NCBI RefSeq assembly: GCF_016865365.1
Contig: NZ_AP024469.1
Span: forward strand, 1,603,001 to 1,667,000
Source of the DNA: Geobacter sp. SVR
GTDB taxonomy: Bacteria; Desulfobacterota; Desulfuromonadia; Geobacterales; Pseudopelobacteraceae
Length of the DNA stretch: 64,000 nt
Reading direction: 5' to 3'
Position 1 is the first letter of the stretch, and each line of letters begins with the position of its first letter. The notes below the pieces were generated by a model, which was not told the DNA's origin, searched no databases, and worked only from the letters and a program-made list of their open reading frames with translations. Shown here piece by piece: positions 38,198-44,741 of this stretch. Made by a program: the position numbers and the translations under genes.

Positions 38198-38677
38198 CTA
38201 TTTCACGGTCGCATTCTTGATCAGGAAGAAAATCCCTCGTTTGTTGTCGCTCGCCAAGGTCAGGGTGCCTGAAACCGTGACCAGGTCTTCCTGCCATTTC
38301 ACCGGTTCAGAGGTAAAGACCTCCACCACCTCGTTGGGGGCTCCGGGAGGGCAGAAGGCGCAGGTAGGGGCGCGCTTGCTCAGGATGAAATGGGTGAATT
38401 TCTCCTTGGCCTCCAGGGGCAGCATGAAGCCGCTGATCACGGTCTGCCTGCCGTTCATGGCCTTGACCTCCGGGGTATAGGCGATGCCGTAGGAAAAATC
38501 CTGATTCCGCCTGAGCTTGCATTGGGCGAAATGTTTCCAGATCTGGTCCTCCGACTGCATCTGGCGGGGTCCCGGTGGCAAGGGCACCGGATCGCCGGAG
38601 CGGGAAAAACGGGCATCGGGCGGGGTAAAACCGCAGGCCAGCGCTACCATCAGGATGCAGAACACAATGCGTATCAT
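38198..38677 (-). CDS. DUF3299 secreted protein of the zinc-type operon
   Basis: A 159-residue exported protein with a signal peptide (residues 1-16, VALACG, possibly a lipoprotein). It carries the DUF3299 pattern: ISGFMLPLE near 82, then RAPTCAFCPPGAPNEVVEV near 103-121 with a CxxC pair. In Pseudomonas aeruginosa a DUF3299 protein is encoded with a MacB-like ATPase and FtsX permease in a zinc-responsive operon (PA4063-PA4066); the same trio is seen here. The start has GGAGG. Confidence 0.82.
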   Translation of the reverse strand: MIRIVFCILMVALACGFTPPDARFSRSGDPVPLPPGPRQMQSEDQIWKHFAQCKLRRNQDFSYGIAYTPEVKAMNGRQTVISGFMLPLEAKEKFTHFILSKRAPTCAFCPPGAPNEVVEVFTSEPVKWQEDLVTVSGTLTLASDNKRGIFFLIKNATVK

Positions 38678-38686
38678 AGGGCCTCC

Positions 38687-39958
38687 TCAGCGTTGTACCA
38701 ATGTCTTGAAAATGTCGATCCGGTAGACCTGCACCGCCGGCAACAGGGCCGCGGCAGCGCCCACCACCAGGCACAGGGGGAGCAGCCAGGCCTCCTCGGC
38801 CAGGAACAGCCGGCCCGTCATGTGCAGGTGTTTGGTGTGCTCCAGCCAGGCGGCGATACCCCCCACCAGCAGATGACCTGCCACGAGCCCGACAGCCGCG
38901 CTGATCAACGAAACGGCCAGGCTCTCGGTCATCATCAGGGCGAACAGTTTTCCCGGTTTGGCGCCGAAACCGCGCATCAGGGCCAGGTCGTAGCGCCGCT
39001 CGTTCATGGCGTTGTACAGCCCGGCAAAAATGCCGAGGCCGGCCAGTGCGATCAGGAACCAGGCAAAGAAGGTGAGCGTTTCCGTGCCGGTCCCCATGAA
39101 CGAGGTCAGGCGCGCCACCTCGAAGGCCGGGCTGGCCGCTTGCATCGAGGTGGTTCCGTTGATCATGCGGGGAAGCTCCGCCGCTGCAAGCGGCGAATTG
39201 TAGGAAACCAGCAGGGAGGTGATTTCACGCTTGCCTTCGTGTTCATCCGCATCGTGGTGGTCGTGGTCGTCGTCATGGTGGTGCGCCTCCTCCGCATGAT
39301 GCTCGTCATGGTCCTCATCGTGGTCTTCGTCGTGGTGATGGTGCTCGTGGATATGCCAGACGCTCTCCAGGCCGGTCAGGATCAGCCGGTCCACTACGGT
39401 GCCGGTCGGTTCGAGGATGCCGGTCACGGTGTAGGGAAACTCCGCATGCACCTCGCCGCCGGAGGTCAGGCCGTGGGAACCGGCAAAGGAGTCGCCGGGC
39501 CTGAGCCCGCTTCTGGCGGCGGCTTCGGCACCCAGCACGGCTTCCATCTCCTTGTGCCAGTAGCGTCCCCCCGGTTTCAGCCTGGCCTGGTAATGACCGG
39601 GATAGGCCGGGGTGGTGCCGACGATGCGGAAGCCGCGGTAGTTGTCCCCCAGAGAGAGGGGAATGGCCTCACTGATGAGCGGGTGTTTGCCCAGCTTTTC
39701 CGCCTCGTCCAGCGGAATGTTGCCGGTGGGAATGTCCAGGTAAAACACGCTGGAAAGGATGAGCTGCATGGGGCTGCCCTTGCCCCCCACCACCAGGTCG
39801 ATCCCTTTCAGGTTGTTGGAAAAATCGGACTGGAGCTGGGCATTAACCAGCAGCAGGACCACGATCATGGCCACGCCGGCGGCAAAGGTGACGATGGTGA
39901 GGGCGGTGCTCAGCGTCTTGTGGCGCAGATAGGCGAAACTCAGGCTCAGATTGTTCAT
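38687..39958 (-). CDS. FtsX/MacB-type ABC permease with histidine-rich periplasmic loop
   Basis: A 423-residue permease with one N-terminal helix (about 18-40), a large periplasmic domain and three C-terminal helices (from about 295), the MacB/LolC topology. Inside the periplasmic domain a stretch near residues 200-245 contains about 18 histidines mixed with Asp/Glu (HHHHDEDHDEDHDEHH), a probable metal-binding loop. It overlaps the upstream ATPase frame by ATGA. With the ATPase and DUF3299 it likely forms a zinc-linked mechanotransmission or lipoprotein-handling complex. Confidence 0.88.
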   Translation of the reverse strand: MNNLSLSFAYLRHKTLSTALTIVTFAAGVAMIVVLLLVNAQLQSDFSNNLKGIDLVVGGKGSPMQLILSSVFYLDIPTGNIPLDEAEKLGKHPLISEAIPLSLGDNYRGFRIVGTTPAYPGHYQARLKPGGRYWHKEMEAVLGAEAAARSGLRPGDSFAGSHGLTSGGEVHAEFPYTVTGILEPTGTVVDRLILTGLESVWHIHEHHHHDEDHDEDHDEHHAEEAHHHDDDHDHHDADEHEGKREITSLLVSYNSPLAAAELPRMINGTTSMQAASPAFEVARLTSFMGTGTETLTFFAWFLIALAGLGIFAGLYNAMNERRYDLALMRGFGAKPGKLFALMMTESLAVSLISAAVGLVAGHLLVGGIAAWLEHTKHLHMTGRLFLAEEAWLLPLCLVVGAAAALLPAVQVYRIDIFKTLVQR

Positions 39959-41442
39959 CGGTCACCTCCGACCATGATCTGTTTGTGGAAATATTTTTTG
40001 ATGCGCTGGTCGTGGGTGGCGACCACCAGGCTGGCATTGTCGATCGCAGCCAGCTTGAGCAGGAGCCCCATCACGGTTTCGCAGGCCGCGTCGTCCAGGG
40101 CCGAGGTGGGCTCGTCGCCGACAATGATCCGGGGAGCATTGATAACGGCCCGCGCGATTGCCACACGCTGCTGCTGCCCCTGGCTCAATGTCTCGGGTTT
40201 GTCGTCCTTCTTGTCCGCAAGGCCGAGCTGTTCCAGCAGATACAGGGCCTTGGCCCGGTCCTGGGGCAGTCCGGCCGCATAGCGGGCCAGCAGCAGGTTC
40301 TGCATGACCGTCAGGGCACCGGCCATGTGCAGGGTCTGGTAGATGATGCCGATGTTCCTGCCGCGGAACTCGTCCAGGGCCGCTCCCCGCAGGTCGCCGA
40401 AGCTTGTGCCGTCCAGGGTCATTGTTCCGCCGAGCGGGGTCAGCAGGCCCGCCAGGGTGCACAGCAGCGTGGTCTTGCCCGAACCGGACGCCCCGAGGAG
40501 CAGGCAATGCTCTCCGGGAGCAAGCGTGAGCTGCGGCAGTTCCACGACAACCTTGTCTTCGTATCCTGCCTTGAGTTGGGTGATTTCTAACATGGAAACC
40601 TCGTGAGATGATGGGGATGTGGAATGACGGTCGCATCCCGGCGTTTCAGGGATGCCGTTTTTTCCCTTGAGGAAGATCCTGAGCGCGAGCAGGGCGAAAA
40701 ACAGGCCGGCCAGCCCTGCCACGATGACCGGGGCCGTGGGAAGGTCGAGCCTGAACGAGAGGAAAATCCCGGCCATGCTGACCAGCACCCCCACCAGCCA
40801 GCCGGTCACGAGCACCCGGGACGGTTTTCGGAAAAAGAGCCGGCCGATCAGGGCCGGGATAACGAGGAACGAGAAGACCTGCAGGATGCCGGCCATACGT
40901 ACCGATTTCACCAGCACGATGCTGAAGCTGGCAAAGAAGAGCAACTCCGTCGGAAAGCCCCCTTTACCCTCGAAGGATAGGGCATGGAAGCGTTTTCTGA
41001 GCAGGAAATGCAGCAGGCCGACGCAGCCGTACAGGGCCGCGGTGGAGAGGAGTTCATGCGGCGTGACCCACAGGATATTGCCGTTCATGATGGTCTTGAA
41101 CTCCTCCATGCCGTGGGGGCTGCGGTCCAGGATCAGGGTGGCGGCGGAGAAGGAGAAGATGTAGAGCACCCCGATAAAGGCCTCGATGTTCACATGGCGG
41201 GCCGCCGTGCGGGAAAGGGCCAGGACGACCGAGCCGAGCAGGGCGAAAACCAGGGAAAGGAGCAGGCCCCGCTGCTCTCCCACGACAAAGGACAGGGCCA
41301 GGCCGATCCCGATGAACTGGGCCAGGGCCAGGTCAACGAAGATGATGCCCCGCTCCAGGATATGGATGCCGAACCAGGCATGGATCAGGATCAGCAGCAG
41401 GCAGGCCAAAAACGGCCAGATCAGAAAGGTGAGCGCTTCCAT
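39955..41442 (-). CDS. Fused zinc/manganese ABC permease and LolD/MacB-type ATPase
   Basis: A 495-residue open frame. Residues 1-265 are an ABC-3 family permease like ZnuB/TroC (HAWFGIHILERGIIFVDLALAQ), with about eight helices. A 20-residue linker leads to a complete ATPase: Walker A GASGSGKTT, signature LSQGQQQRVA, Walker B IIVGDEPTSALD. The ATPase resembles LolD/MacB partners of FtsX permeases, not ZnuC. An internal ATG at 40593 with ACGAGG ahead could also give a free 212-residue ATPase. Confidence 0.87.
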   Translation of the reverse strand: MEALTFLIWPFLACLLLILIHAWFGIHILERGIIFVDLALAQFIGIGLALSFVVGEQRGLLLSLVFALLGSVVLALSRTAARHVNIEAFIGVLYIFSFSAATLILDRSPHGMEEFKTIMNGNILWVTPHELLSTAALYGCVGLLHFLLRKRFHALSFEGKGGFPTELLFFASFSIVLVKSVRMAGILQVFSFLVIPALIGRLFFRKPSRVLVTGWLVGVLVSMAGIFLSFRLDLPTAPVIVAGLAGLFFALLALRIFLKGKNGIPETPGCDRHSTSPSSHEVSMLEITQLKAGYEDKVVVELPQLTLAPGEHCLLLGASGSGKTTLLCTLAGLLTPLGGTMTLDGTSFGDLRGAALDEFRGRNIGIIYQTLHMAGALTVMQNLLLARYAAGLPQDRAKALYLLEQLGLADKKDDKPETLSQGQQQRVAIARAVINAPRIIVGDEPTSALDDAACETVMGLLLKLAAIDNASLVVATHDQRIKKYFHKQIMVGGDR

Positions 41443-41537
41443 CGGTTCTCCTTCGCGCGCTGCAACGGCGTGACATGACTTTTCAGGACCTCCGGGGCCG
41501 CCGATGCCCCGGAGGTTTGTCGTGAATGGCCGGTCCG

Positions 41538-42425
41538 TTACCGCAGGGCCGCCAGCACCGTATCCATGAAGGCGAACCAGGTGTCGCTCCCCTTCACGGC
41601 ACCCACATCCTGGGGCAGCACGATCACCTTTACCCCTGTTTTGGCGGACAGGGCCTCGGCTTCCTTCAGGCCGTAGGAAGGGGTGACCAGAATGCCGTCC
41701 GGTTTGCTGCTCCGCATGTCGCTGACCAGCTTTTCGATATGGGCCGCCGAGGGGGGAATGCCCGGTTTCGGCTCCACATATGCCGCAATCCCGAAGCCGT
41801 AGTCCGCTGCCAGGTACTCGAAGTAATGGTGATAGGCCACGTAGCGCTTCCCTTTCAGGTCAGGGCGGTTCCACTGTTTGCGTTTTTCCTCGAACCTGGC
41901 GGCAAAGGCCTTGAAATTGGAGCGGTACGCCTCCGCATTGGCCCGGTCCAGGCCGGCCAGGACGGTGGTCATGCCCTCCGCCACGCGCAGCACATTGACG
42001 GGAGAAAAGTTGTAATGGGGGTTGCCGAGCGGATGGATGTCCCCCATGCTCCGCTCCACCACCGCATGCTTTTCGATCACGTTGACGAACCGGGAGCAGT
42101 CCAGGTTGCCCGGCCGGCCCGGCATGATCAGCGGATTCCGGGATTGTTCGATAATGATGGGAAGATAGCCGATCTCCAGGTCCAGCCCCTGGTACATGAC
42201 AATATCGGCCCTGCGGGCGGCCAGGATCATGCTCGGTTTTGCCTCCAGAAAGTGCGGGTCCTGGCTGGGTTTGACCAGGGTGGTGACCGCGACCTTGTTC
42301 CCGCCGATCTCCTGTGCCAGGCTGCCGATCCAGGGCAGGGTGGCGACCACGTTGAGCTTGGCAAAGGCGGGGGAGGCCAGTGTCAGTGACAGCAGGACGG
42401 TGAATGCAAGCATTGTGTTTCGCAT
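41538..42425 (-). CDS. Zinc/manganese ABC transporter substrate-binding protein (ZnuA-like)
   Basis: A 295-residue cluster-9 binding protein. The signal peptide ends near ASPAFA. Metal-ligand segments are DPHFLEAKPS (near 57), GDIHPLGNPHYNFSP (near 130) and VAYHHYFEYLAADYG (near 195). There is no His-rich acidic loop, so zinc versus manganese is open, though the operon looks zinc-like. The ATG at 42425 follows AAGGAG; the longer frame from 42464 is rejected. Confidence 0.9.
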   Translation of the reverse strand: MRNTMLAFTVLLSLTLASPAFAKLNVVATLPWIGSLAQEIGGNKVAVTTLVKPSQDPHFLEAKPSMILAARRADIVMYQGLDLEIGYLPIIIEQSRNPLIMPGRPGNLDCSRFVNVIEKHAVVERSMGDIHPLGNPHYNFSPVNVLRVAEGMTTVLAGLDRANAEAYRSNFKAFAARFEEKRKQWNRPDLKGKRYVAYHHYFEYLAADYGFGIAAYVEPKPGIPPSAAHIEKLVSDMRSSKPDGILVTPSYGLKEAEALSAKTGVKVIVLPQDVGAVKGSDTWFAFMDTVLAALR

Positions 42426-42450
42426 GGTGTATCTCCTTGAAAAGCCTTTA

Positions 42451-42515
42451 ACCACGGAGGACACGGAGTAGGATCAAAACAAGGTCTGCCCGGTTTTCTC
42501 CGTGTCCTCCGTGGT
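42451..42515. repeat. CCACGGAGGACACGGAG inverted repeat
   Basis: ACCACGGAGGACACGGAG (42451-42468) and its exact complement (42498-42515) form an 18-bp perfect stem with a 29-base loop, between the porin and ZnuA-like genes of one operon. It is the complete form of a word seen singly or imperfectly at 34832 and 43949-44075. Confidence 0.75.
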
Positions 42516-42545
42516 AAATCGCCTTTGATTCTTTCGTTAGAACCG

Positions 42546-43910
42546 TCAGAACGTATGGGCCGGATGGGCGCCGATGGTGAAGATCGCCTGCAGGATGCCT
42601 TCGTTGTTCACCCGGCCGCCGGGGTCCGAGCGGTCGTGGGTGTACTGGGCCCGGATGGTGCTGAATTCGGTCGGATTGAACTCCAGGCTACCGGTGGCGC
42701 GCCACGGTTTGCCGCTGAACTGCTGCTGGACCCCGGCCACCCGGAAGGTGTCGTCGAACAGCTCCAGCCGGTCGTAGCGCGCCCCGGCCCGCCAGCGGCC
42801 GTAGCGGTAGAGCGCCTGGATGTAGGCCCCGTCCTGGTGGCGCTTGAGGCGCTCAACGGAGACCGGGGCACCGCTGGGGTCGCTGGTGGTCAGGTCGCCG
42901 TTCTGCACCAGGTAGAGGTATTCCCCCTGCACGGTCACCCCCTGCTGGCCGGACTTCCACTTCCAGACCGCCTCCAGGCCGTAGAGGGCGCTGTCGCCCC
43001 GCAGGTTAAAGGTGTTGCCGGTTGCTTCATCGGCCGGCAGGATGGAGCCGCTGTTGGTGGAGCCGAACAGGACCCAGGGGCCGGCATAGAGGGTGGAATT
43101 GTCGGAGGTGTCCAGCGACACCTTGGCAAAGGCCGAAAAGGCGTGGGGACCCCAGCGGTCGTCCTTGCCGAACAACAGGCTGTTGCTGTCCCCCTGCAGG
43201 ACCTCGATCCCCAGCAGGGTATAGACCGGCAGGGGGGGCAGCCAGGTGAACTGGACCCCATTCTCGCCGCCCAGCCCCTCGGACCCGAGAAAGGCCTTGT
43301 AGGGCAGGGCGATGTCGGCAAAGTCCCAGGCATGGGGATGCTGGGCATTCAGGCGGCTGGTGTTGCTCTTGAAGCGCCCCCCCTTGATCTGGAAGCCGGC
43401 CGGCAGGGAGGTGGTCACGAAGTAGGCCTCTTCCAGTTCGACCCCCTCTTCGTTGATCGGGATGTTGACGTAGAGGTTGAAATAGGGGTCCACCGGGGCA
43501 AAGAGGAACAGCTCGGCGGCATCGATATTGAATCCGTTGTGCAGGCCCCGCCCCTCGGTGGTGAAGCCGGGCACGCCGCGGCTCTCCAGTTCGCTGTTCT
43601 TGAGGTTGGAGACATAGCCCTTGGCGTCCAGCACCAGCGAGACATAGGGGTTGGTCATCAGCGAGCCGCCGAACAGGCCGGTGGGCTTGCCGCTCTGTTC
43701 CGGGACGTGGCTTTCGACCGGCTTCTGCTCGTTCAGGCGGTCTTTGAGGTCATCGATGGTCTTCTGCTGTTCGCGGATGGTCTCGGTCTGCTTGCCCACT
43801 TCCGCATCCAGGCGGTTCAGGCGCGAGTTCAGGTCTTCTTCTGCAAAGGAAAAGGAACCGCAAAGGCACACGGCCATGACGGCGGCCGCGGCAATGACAG
43901 GCGTACGCAT
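42546..43910 (-). CDS. Outer-membrane porin of the zinc-type operon
   Basis: A 454-residue exported protein. A signal peptide (residues 1-23) is followed by a coiled coil (about 25-60, LNSRLNRLDAEVGKQTETI), which may trimerise, and a long beta-barrel with strands such as EGVELEEAYFVTT and AYIQALYRYGRWRAGARYDRL. The start at 43910 follows AGGAGG. Coiled coil plus barrel resembles phosphate- or zinc-regulated porins. Its place ahead of the ZnuA-like gene suggests zinc passage across the outer membrane. Confidence 0.82.
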   Translation of the reverse strand: MRTPVIAAAAVMAVCLCGSFSFAEEDLNSRLNRLDAEVGKQTETIREQQKTIDDLKDRLNEQKPVESHVPEQSGKPTGLFGGSLMTNPYVSLVLDAKGYVSNLKNSELESRGVPGFTTEGRGLHNGFNIDAAELFLFAPVDPYFNLYVNIPINEEGVELEEAYFVTTSLPAGFQIKGGRFKSNTSRLNAQHPHAWDFADIALPYKAFLGSEGLGGENGVQFTWLPPLPVYTLLGIEVLQGDSNSLLFGKDDRWGPHAFSAFAKVSLDTSDNSTLYAGPWVLFGSTNSGSILPADEATGNTFNLRGDSALYGLEAVWKWKSGQQGVTVQGEYLYLVQNGDLTTSDPSGAPVSVERLKRHQDGAYIQALYRYGRWRAGARYDRLELFDDTFRVAGVQQQFSGKPWRATGSLEFNPTEFSTIRAQYTHDRSDPGGRVNNEGILQAIFTIGAHPAHTF

Positions 43911-43948: not shown

Positions 43949-44075
43949 CCACAGAGGACACAGAGTTCTCAGAGGAAAACCTTCAGGGGCAAACGTACCT
44001 GGATGGGCGGGACCAACGGGATGTTGGCAACGTCAAGACTCTGGTTTTTCTCTGTGTTCTCGGTGAACTCTGTGG
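43949..44075. repeat. Imperfect CCACAGAGGACACAGAG inverted repeat
   Basis: CCACAGAGGACACAGAG (43949-43965) faces CTCTGTGTTCTCGGTGAACTCTGTGG-like sequence ending at 44075. It is a decayed version of the perfect element at 42451-42515, again just upstream of a gene of the same operon. Confidence 0.55.
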
Positions 44076-44100: not shown

Positions 44101-44409
44101 TCAGGCAGGAGGAGCGCGGTTGTGCGGCAGCAGCGGGGCCTTGGCGGCCGGCGCCGTCGGGACGGCGGAGGTGAAGAGGGTGGGGAATTCGACCGGCAGG
44201 CTGAGCAGCACGCGATGTGCCACGGCCGTGTCGGCGCTGTGGTGGTGCGCCACGGCGCAGATGCTGCAATCCGGGTGGTCCTGCTCGTCCGCATGGTGAT
44301 GAAAGGCGGACAGCACCATGGCGGCTGTCAGCAGGAACGACAACAGCAGCGCGCCGGCACGGTTTTTCAGCTTCCGGATGCGGATATGTCCGGGAGGGGC
44401 ATGCGTCAT
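44101..44409 (-). CDS. Small exported His/Cys-rich protein (DUF2946-like)
   Basis: A 102-residue protein with a basic N-terminus and one hydrophobic segment (about 19-36, likely signal peptide). FHHHADEQDHPDCSICAVAHHH (37-58) follows, a clear HHH/CxxC/HHH metal-binding patch; the tail is Ala/Pro-rich. It resembles DUF2946-type proteins found in metal operons. The ATG has no visible ribosome site and lies close to the predicted transcription start, so it may be leaderless. It is first in the zinc-type operon. Confidence 0.65.
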   Translation of the reverse strand: MTHAPPGHIRIRKLKNRAGALLLSFLLTAAMVLSAFHHHADEQDHPDCSICAVAHHHSADTAVAHRVLLSLPVEFPTLFTSAVPTAPAAKAPLLPHNRAPPA

Positions 44410-44462: not shown

Positions 44463-44741
44463 TCATTCCTGTTCAGCGACGTACTCATAGCGGATCGGCT
44501 TGTCGTCAGCCTTGATGTCCCGCGCGATGCCCGATTCCGCCAGCAGCTTGAGCGTGCGGTACACCGTGCTGCACCCTATGTTCTTGTGCCTGGTCCTCAG
44601 GTGCCGGTAGAATTCGTCCACACTCAGGTCCTGGCTGCAGTTGAGGAAGGCATCCACAATGAGATTCCGCTGCCGGGTCCACTTGAGGCCGCGGCTCTGA
44701 ACGATGTAGTCGCGAAATTTCTGTTTGATGTCGGATTTCAC
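44463..44741 (-). CDS. Short Fur-family regulator (DNA-binding domain only)
   Basis: A 92-residue protein matching only the N-terminal winged helix of Fur/Zur/PerR: LKWTRQRNLIVDAFL, then IGCSTVYRTLKLLAESGIA, then RYEYV. Normal family members have 130-160 residues with a metal-binding dimerisation domain; here the frame ends in VAEQE with a TGA. I see no continuation of that domain in the sequence after the stop. It follows the HD-GYP gene by 18 bases and precedes the Zur/Fur-like operator, so it may regulate the zinc-type operon or be a truncated relic. Confidence 0.8.
   Translation of the reverse strand: MKSDIKQKFRDYIVQSRGLKWTRQRNLIVDAFLNCSQDLSVDEFYRHLRTRHKNIGCSTVYRTLKLLAESGIARDIKADDKPIRYEYVAEQE

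What the first reader, a model, noticed from the sequence alone, without database searches (positions are those of the whole stretch)
38198..42425. Zinc-type importer with permease and a MacB/LolD-like ATPase in one chain, serving two permeases
The ZnuB-like permease is fused to the only ATPase in the operon, and that ATPase resembles partners of FtsX permeases rather than ZnuC. The next gene is an FtsX permease with DUF3299, the trio known from the zinc-responsive PA4063-PA4066 region of P. aeruginosa. One ATPase may power two different membrane partners, or an internal start (40593) may supply a free ATPase.
Basis: partly seen in the sequence, partly recalled or inferred. Interest (0 to 1): 0.5.

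Follow-up and report, generated by a model that had tools for sequence, protein, structure and literature searches.

The report
Metal permease fused to borrowed ATPase
A bacterium has joined, in one protein, a zinc-type import channel and the ATP-burning engine of a different transporter; the channel belongs to a little-noticed family that seems to have lost both its own engine and the part where an engine would dock.

Summary
One 495-codon frame (39955..41442, minus strand) holds an ABC-3 permease (PF00950) and an intact ABC ATPase, with no stop between them and an ATG at 40593 that coincides with the start of the ATPase in five relatives.

The ATPase belongs with the next two genes. ATPase-FtsX-DUF3299 is the ZrgC-ZrgB-ZrgE / PA4064-PA4066 module, a split MacB. 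In four of five related loci the ATPase stands alone; in the fifth it continues in frame from a different permease that has its own ZnuC.

The permease belongs to a clade found with a small His/Cys protein, an outer-membrane barrel and a zinc-type binding protein, but with no ATPase: 0 of 38 loci have one within 1.5 kb, against 21 of 21 canonical ZnuB loci. All 37 members aligned, plus the window, lack 7 residues at the coupling helix, where an ATPase docks. Four genomes with this permease or its nearest outgroup have no other ABC-3 permease and no recognisable ZnuC.

So the fused ATPase most likely drives FtsX, not the permease. A metal permease family freed from its ATPase is the more novel result. 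Nothing has been shown at the bench.

The parts
39955..41442 (-). 495-aa fusion: ABC-3 permease (residues 1-262), linker (about 263-283), ABC ATPase (284-495)
40657..41442 (-). permease half, ATPase-less clade; invariant Q42 at the column of PsaC metal ligand His50
40966..40971 (-). codons of residues 158/159, between which 7 residues of the ZnuB coupling helix (AxxxG segment) are missing
   Evidence: deletion shared by 37 of 37 clade rows aligned; absent from 22 of 22 ZnuB rows
40594..40656 (-). linker, stop-free; contains an inverted repeat (40633-40656) with no unusual folding energy (z -0.08)
39955..40593 (-). 212-aa ATPase (ZrgC / PA4064 type) with its own ATG; stop overlaps the FtsX start (ATGA)
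   Evidence: SD energy -7.1 kcal/mol
38687..39958 (-). FtsX/MacB_PCD permease (ZrgB / PA4065 type)
39230..39352 (-). His/Asp-rich stretch of the FtsX protein (about residues 203-243), also present, in varying length, in five relatives (very short in L061)
38198..38677 (-). DUF3299 protein (ZrgE / PA4066 type)
41538..42425 (-). ZnuA/AztC-like metal-binding protein; His58, His137, His199 conserved in 38 of 38 rows
42546..43910 (-). outer-membrane beta-barrel with N-terminal coiled-coil-like stretch (ORF opens at 43961; ATG at 43910 chosen by eye)
44101..44409 (-). small His/Cys protein (FHHH..D..DHPDCSICAVAHHH), weakly DUF2946-like; same motif upstream of the barrel in 30 of 32 clade loci examined
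44463..44741 (-). short Fur-family regulator, 92 aa; link to the operon not tested

Best explanation
Two independent modules have been joined. Upstream is a four-gene metal-acquisition module: small His/Cys protein, outer-membrane barrel, zinc-type binding protein, and an ABC-3 permease. That permease belongs to a clade which has lost its dedicated ATPase and most of the coupling helix, so it is unlikely to be driven by an ABC ATPase in the ordinary way. I infer that it passes metal from the binding protein by facilitated or ion-coupled movement. Downstream is a Zrg / PA4064-PA4066 split-MacB module: ATPase, FtsX permease, DUF3299. In this genome the stop of the permease is gone, so the MacB-type ATPase is made partly as the tail of the permease, and probably also as a free 212-aa protein from ATG 40593. 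The ATPase drives its neighbour FtsX, with which it is probably translationally coupled (ATGA overlap); the permease half is a membrane tether for it, or a passenger. Shown by sequence: the fusion, the module structure, the lack of a neighbouring ATPase, the 7-residue deletion, the intact ATPase motifs. Inferred: which partner the ATPase drives, that a free ATPase is made, how the permease works, and that the metal is zinc.
For: Relatives of the permease (57-79% identity) sit in barrel-binding protein-permease operons that end in their own stop, while relatives of the ATPase (59-76%) sit with FtsX and DUF3299 elsewhere. ATPase within 1.5 kb: 0 of 38 clade loci (25 with at least 2.5 kb on both sides, 0 of 25) against 21 of 21 canonical ZnuB loci found by the same method. 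7-residue coupling-helix deletion: 37 of 37 clade rows and the window, 0 of 22 ZnuB rows. The clade, window included, is one branch of the tree (SH-aLRT 99, deletion columns left out). In S. aureus IsdF an A and a G of the coupling helix are together needed to bind FhuC (PMC10147376); the aligned stretch is the one deleted. Three genomes with the deleted permease (G149, G240, G430) and one with its outgroup form (G130) have no other PF00950 protein, and their best ZnuC-profile scores (147-158 bits) are those of background ATPases (canonical ZnuC 272-369 bits; related genomes without any PF00950 hit 145-164 bits). Permease constraint: dN/dS 0.07-0.15 in six pairs. L045: ZnuC present, yet the same kind of ATPase fused to the ZnuB. 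PA4064/PA4065 described as a two-chain MacB (PMC11481552).
Against: No transport, expression or binding data exist here. A helix remains just before the deletion (residues 149-157 in the model) and a shortened coupling helix might still touch an ATPase. Permeases powered in trans by a distant ATPase are known (IsdF by FhuC), and 21 of 25 permease-bearing genomes do have another PF00950 match. The outgroup ('mid') loci also lack an operon ATPase but mostly keep the helix (5 of 6 rows of normal length), so loss of the neighbouring ATPase alone does not prove ATP independence. A fusion can itself be read as a sign that permease and ATPase work together. The SD before ATG 40593 is moderate: 8.7% of ORF positions score as well. 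The canonical ZnuB loci used as control were fetched because they matched PF00950 well.
Confidence: 0.58

Rival explanations
1. One ATPase, two partners: the fused ATPase powers the permease as well as FtsX, so this species has re-energised an ATPase-less importer with a borrowed MacB-type engine.
For: Physical fusion; the ATPase motifs are intact; it is the only clade member seen with an ATPase at all.
Against: The window permease carries the same 7-residue deletion as the rest of the clade and differs at only 1 position that is 95% conserved in 36 other members, so nothing suggests re-adaptation to an ATPase. In L045 the same kind of ATPase is fused to a permease that has its own ZnuC.
Confidence: 0.13
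2. The clade permeases are ordinary ABC importers energised in trans by an ATPase encoded elsewhere (ZnuC where present, another ATPase otherwise), like IsdF by FhuC.
For: 21 of 25 permease-bearing genomes hold another PF00950 match, and the window genome has a full ZnuABC. Trans sharing is documented. A short helix remains at residues 149-157.
Against: The ATPase-docking AxxxG stretch is deleted in 37 of 37 rows. Four genomes lack both ZnuB and a recognisable ZnuC, although a distant ATPase cannot be excluded there.
Confidence: 0.25
3. The missing stop is a sequencing error or a very recent mutation; the genes are separate in effect and the fusion has no meaning.
For: Many linker codons are one base from a stop; the ATPase start and SD are retained; no near relative shares the fusion (97 genomes searched, own included; only the window's matched over its whole length).
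Against: Single-contig complete genome. A second, independent permease::ATPase frame exists in L045. The stretch before the ATG is stop-free over about 20 codons.
Confidence: 0.12

Closest known systems
ZrgABCDE of Vibrio / PA4063-PA4066 of Pseudomonas aeruginosa (split MacB exporter, Zur-regulated)
   Same: ATPase, FtsX-type permease and DUF3299 protein as neighbours; an ATPase separate from the FtsX chain
   Different: No ZrgA (PF10986) found in this genome (the control genomes gave none either, so inconclusive); the FtsX protein carries a His/Asp-rich stretch; the ATPase is fused to an unrelated permease
ZnuABC / AztABC zinc importers (ABC-3, type II ABC importers; PsaBC structure)
   Same: Permease fold (PsaC Z 24.2, rmsd 3.9 over 255 residues); binding protein with three conserved His; best NCBIfam relatives AztC (binding protein) and anch_rpt_perm / AztB (permease)
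   Different: No adjacent ATPase, coupling-helix stretch deleted, PsaC His50 column is Gln, all scores far below NCBIfam cut-offs
IsdEF-FhuC of Staphylococcus aureus (permease energised by a distant ATPase)
   Same: An ABC permease energised by an ATPase that is not its dedicated partner
   Different: IsdF keeps the coupling-helix A and G that bind FhuC; the clade here has lost that stretch

Membership tests
ABC-3 metal importers (ZnuABC type) | PF00950 permease fold | tested here: met
ABC-3 metal importers (ZnuABC type) | ZnuA-type binding protein with metal-ligand histidines | tested here: met
   H58, H137, H199 in 38 of 38, and His in 6 of 6 ZnuA rows at these columns
ABC-3 metal importers (ZnuABC type) | dedicated ZnuC-type ATPase beside the permease | tested here: not met
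   0 of 38 clade loci within 1.5 kb; controls 21 of 21
ABC-3 metal importers (ZnuABC type) | coupling helix with AxxxG stretch | tested here: not met
   7 residues missing in 37 of 37 rows and the window; present in 22 of 22 ZnuB rows
ABC-3 metal importers (ZnuABC type) | Asp46/His50 metal ligands of PsaC | tested here: not met
   His50 column is Gln (invariant in 23 rows); an Asp lies one column before that of Asp46
ABC-3 metal importers (ZnuABC type) | ATP-driven metal uptake | not testable with these tools
   needs transport assay
Zrg / PA4064-PA4066 split MacB | ATPase + FtsX/MacB_PCD permease + DUF3299 in order | tested here: met
Zrg / PA4064-PA4066 split MacB | ZrgA/PA4063 partner (PF10986) | tested here: inconclusive
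   none in this genome, but no control genome rang
Zrg / PA4064-PA4066 split MacB | Zur-regulated | tested here: inconclusive
   no shared palindrome and no good Zur/Fur-like site upstream of the barrel gene in 32 upstream regions, window included

The most novel reading that the evidence does not exclude
A widespread clade of type II ABC importer permeases has shed both its ATPase and the docking helix and works as a binding-protein-dependent, ATP-independent metal transporter (a TRAP-like logic built on an ABC fold), as part of a conserved four-gene module; the window is the one place where a member has been physically joined to a foreign, MacB-type ATPase.
Probability: 0.42. Interest if true: 0.85.

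Novelty: new variant of a known kind. Interest (0 to 1): 0.58.

Why it matters
ABC importers are defined by ATP-driven transport. A conserved, constrained family that keeps the binding protein and the permease fold but lacks an ATPase beside it and the ATPase docking helix would show that an ABC permease can work another way, and it makes that directly testable: a named strain with the module exists (Geobacter argillaceus ATCC BAA-1139, L040). It also warns annotation pipelines that 'metal ABC transporter permease' need not mean an ABC transporter, and that a fused ATPase need not serve the domain it is fused to.

Tried and rejected
Simple read-through of a ZnuC-like neighbour: rejected, because clade permeases are not followed by any ATPase. 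An RNA element in the linker: no Rfam hit, folding z -0.08, and the inverted repeat is not rare enough to stress (2 matches, which are the two strands of one place, against 0.63 expected). Fusion relatives on plasmids: no record covers 80% of the chain among the 5000 kept, a limit that was reached. FtsX relatives on plasmids are all under 60% identity, and their surroundings were not read. Regulatory motif upstream of the barrel gene: nothing shared. Close FtsX relatives in the phylum: only the window genome among 395 at E 1e-40. A mixed alignment meant for a model of the whole fusion (A3) seems to have put the ATPase-only rows over the permease (identities 24-29%) and was not used; the whole fusion was not modelled. 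Structural look-alikes outside type II ABC permeases (aquaporins and others at Z about 6 or less) were not taken as kin. A first script aligned the window ATPase from wrong coordinates; it was redone.

In one search one of six 'mid' loci (L107) has an ATPase 91 nt away; it lies on the opposite strand and is 384 aa long, so I did not count it as an operon partner. For the small His/Cys protein, L037, L048, L054, L095 (no or too little upstream sequence), L062 and L101 were not tested, and L053 and L092 were negative; outgroup loci 1 of 6.

Literature on an ATPase-less ABC-3 family: searches gave no report in their listings; only open-licence papers are held, so absence from print is not claimed.

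Full report
OBSERVATION. The frame 39955..41442 on the minus strand is open for 495 codons. Residues 5-253 match ABC-3 (PF00950, E 2.4e-23) and residues 304-447 match ABC_tran (E 2.8e-29). The internal ATG at 40593 (residue 284) is exactly where the ATPase starts in five relatives. The ATPase stop overlaps the FtsX start (ATGA) in the sequence. The neighbours are a ZnuA-type binding protein and a beta-barrel upstream, FtsX/MacB_PCD and DUF3299 downstream. The window lies in a single-contig genome of 4.72 Mb that also has a canonical ZnuA-ZnuC-ZnuB set. I did not establish the organism's name; two other genomes of its genus were searched and neither has a full-length match.

TWO MODULES. The relatives fall into two sets that do not overlap in place. 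Permease relatives (57-79% identity) lie in barrel-binding protein-permease operons and end in their own stop codon. ATPase relatives (59-76%) lie in ATPase-FtsX-DUF3299 clusters. One MAG (bin-4284) holds the permease operon (L037), a free ATPase cluster (L057) and a third cluster, L045, where the ATPase is in one frame with a different ABC-3 permease (ABC-3 123.8 bits, ABC_tran 111 bits in one chain). L045 has its own ZnuC upstream and its permease keeps the coupling-helix stretch. So the same kind of ATPase has been joined to two different ABC-3 permeases; in both cases an RBS-like sequence before the ATPase ATG is kept (L045 -13.1, window -7.1 kcal/mol; free-standing relatives -5.1 to -8.2; 8.7% of positions in the window ORF score as low as its own). 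This is modest evidence for a free 212-aa product.

WHAT THE ATPASE IS FOR. Published work describes PA4064/PA4065 as a MacB exporter made of two chains, with PA4066 as a periplasmic partner of unclear function (PMC11481552, passages), and the Vibrio operon as ZrgC (ATPase), ZrgB (permease), ZrgE (DUF3299), strongly induced without zinc (PMC9817125, passages). The window trio matches this order. All ATPase motifs are intact in the window copy. The FtsX relatives share a His/Asp-rich stretch of variable length, consistent with a metal-linked role (inference).

THE PERMEASE CLADE HAS NO ATPASE BESIDE IT. With one method (phmmer with the window ATPase and the genome's own ZnuC against all frames of at least 80 aa), 0 of 38 clade loci have an ABC ATPase within 1.5 kb of the permease; 25 of these have at least 2.5 kb on both sides, again 0 of 25. 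Three loci have one 3.4-4.5 kb away. The control, ABC-3 permeases found by Pfam in the same genomes, gives 21 of 21 within 300 nt. Six more distant outgroup loci (34-44% identity) also lack an operon ATPase; one has an opposite-strand ATPase nearby.

THE DOCKING HELIX IS MISSING. Aligned with 22 ZnuB rows, 37 of 37 clade rows and the window share a clean 7-residue gap in the loop that in ZnuB mostly reads like FDEELA...G. Five of six outgroup rows have normal length there and one has a longer gap. The profile alignment to PsaC (7kyo/7kyp) opens gaps in the same loop, as does that to ZnuB (9oko). That this loop is the coupling helix rests on papers: in IsdF the third cytoplasmic loop, with conserved A213 and G217 (the Gly is also in MntB), binds FhuC, and changing both abolishes binding (PMC10147376, section read); FhuB coupling helices are residues 209-226 and 542-559 with critical Gly 226 and 559 (PMC8660799, passage); in BhuU the coupling helix lies between TM6 and TM7 (PMC5136619, passages). 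That the ABC-3 loop aligned here is the same element is my inference from the shared AxxxG pattern and the shared fold. A tree built without these columns places clade and window on one branch (SH-aLRT 99), spanning Thermodesulfobacteriota, Myxococcota-labelled MAGs, Nitrospirota and Nitrospinota, so a single origin of the deletion is the simplest reading. The clade is under constraint: dN/dS 0.07-0.15 in six pairs; the window copy departs from 36 others at one 95%-conserved position only.

IS IT STILL A TRANSPORTER? The model of the permease (23-row alignment, pLDDT 79.5, pTM 0.78) has the type II ABC permease fold (PsaC Z 24.2, rmsd 3.9 over 255 residues; FhuB, BtuC and BhuU Z 17-20). The binding protein keeps His58, His137 and His199 in 38 of 38 rows, aligned with His in all 6 ZnuA rows. 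But PsaC's metal ligand His50 (Asp46/His50: PMC11779740, section read in part) falls on an invariant Gln42. A small His/Cys protein with HHH..D...DC..C precedes the barrel in 30 of 32 clade loci with enough sequence, and in the window at 44101..44409; it resembles DUF2946 below the cut-off (E 0.016 for the window, 0.0012 for a relative). So the conserved unit is four genes.

COULD AN ATPASE HELP FROM AFAR? In 21 of 25 permease-bearing genomes there is another PF00950 match, so ZnuC might be shared. Four genomes have none: G149, G240 and G430 (clade form, each listed as 100% complete) and G130 (outgroup form, 90% complete). A ZnuC profile scores 272-369 bits on the true ZnuC of six comparison genomes, but at best 147-158 bits in these four. 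In the family of G149 (9 genomes), five genomes with no PF00950 match at all reach 145-164 bits, the same as the three with the permease (148-158), so those scores are background. A distant, unrecognised ATPase is not excluded.

CONCLUSION. The fusion is real and rare: of 97 genomes searched (own included) only the window's has it, with one independent parallel (L045, from the scan). The more important result is the permease clade itself. I rate it a new variant of a known kind; if transport without ATP were shown it would be a new kind of transporter. The paper searches made here list no report of such a clade, within an open-licence library only.

Noticed in passing
window 42440-42526 and 43959-44074: Inverted repeats of the CACGGAGGACACGGAG type lie between the barrel and binding-protein genes and upstream of the barrel gene; 5 matches with up to 3 mismatches in the window against 0.93 expected. 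Looks like a dispersed palindromic element.
   Followed up: partly
L045:4001-5662 (Geobacteraceae MAG bin-4284): Second in-frame fusion of a Zrg-type ATPase to an ABC-3 permease, here a ZnuB-like one with its own ZnuC and a His-rich loop.
   Followed up: partly
L102-L107: Outgroup permeases (34-44% identity) in the same barrel-binding protein-permease order, without an operon ATPase, but mostly keeping the coupling-helix length: possible intermediate stage.
   Followed up: partly
L092 / L117 (genome G315): A canonical ZnuA-ZnuC-ZnuB set with a weak Fur-like hit lies divergently next to the ATPase-less module, suggesting a shared metal.
   Followed up: no
window 44463-44741: A short (92 aa) Fur-family protein upstream of the operon, covering only part of the Pfam model; may be a truncated or unusual regulator.
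   Followed up: no
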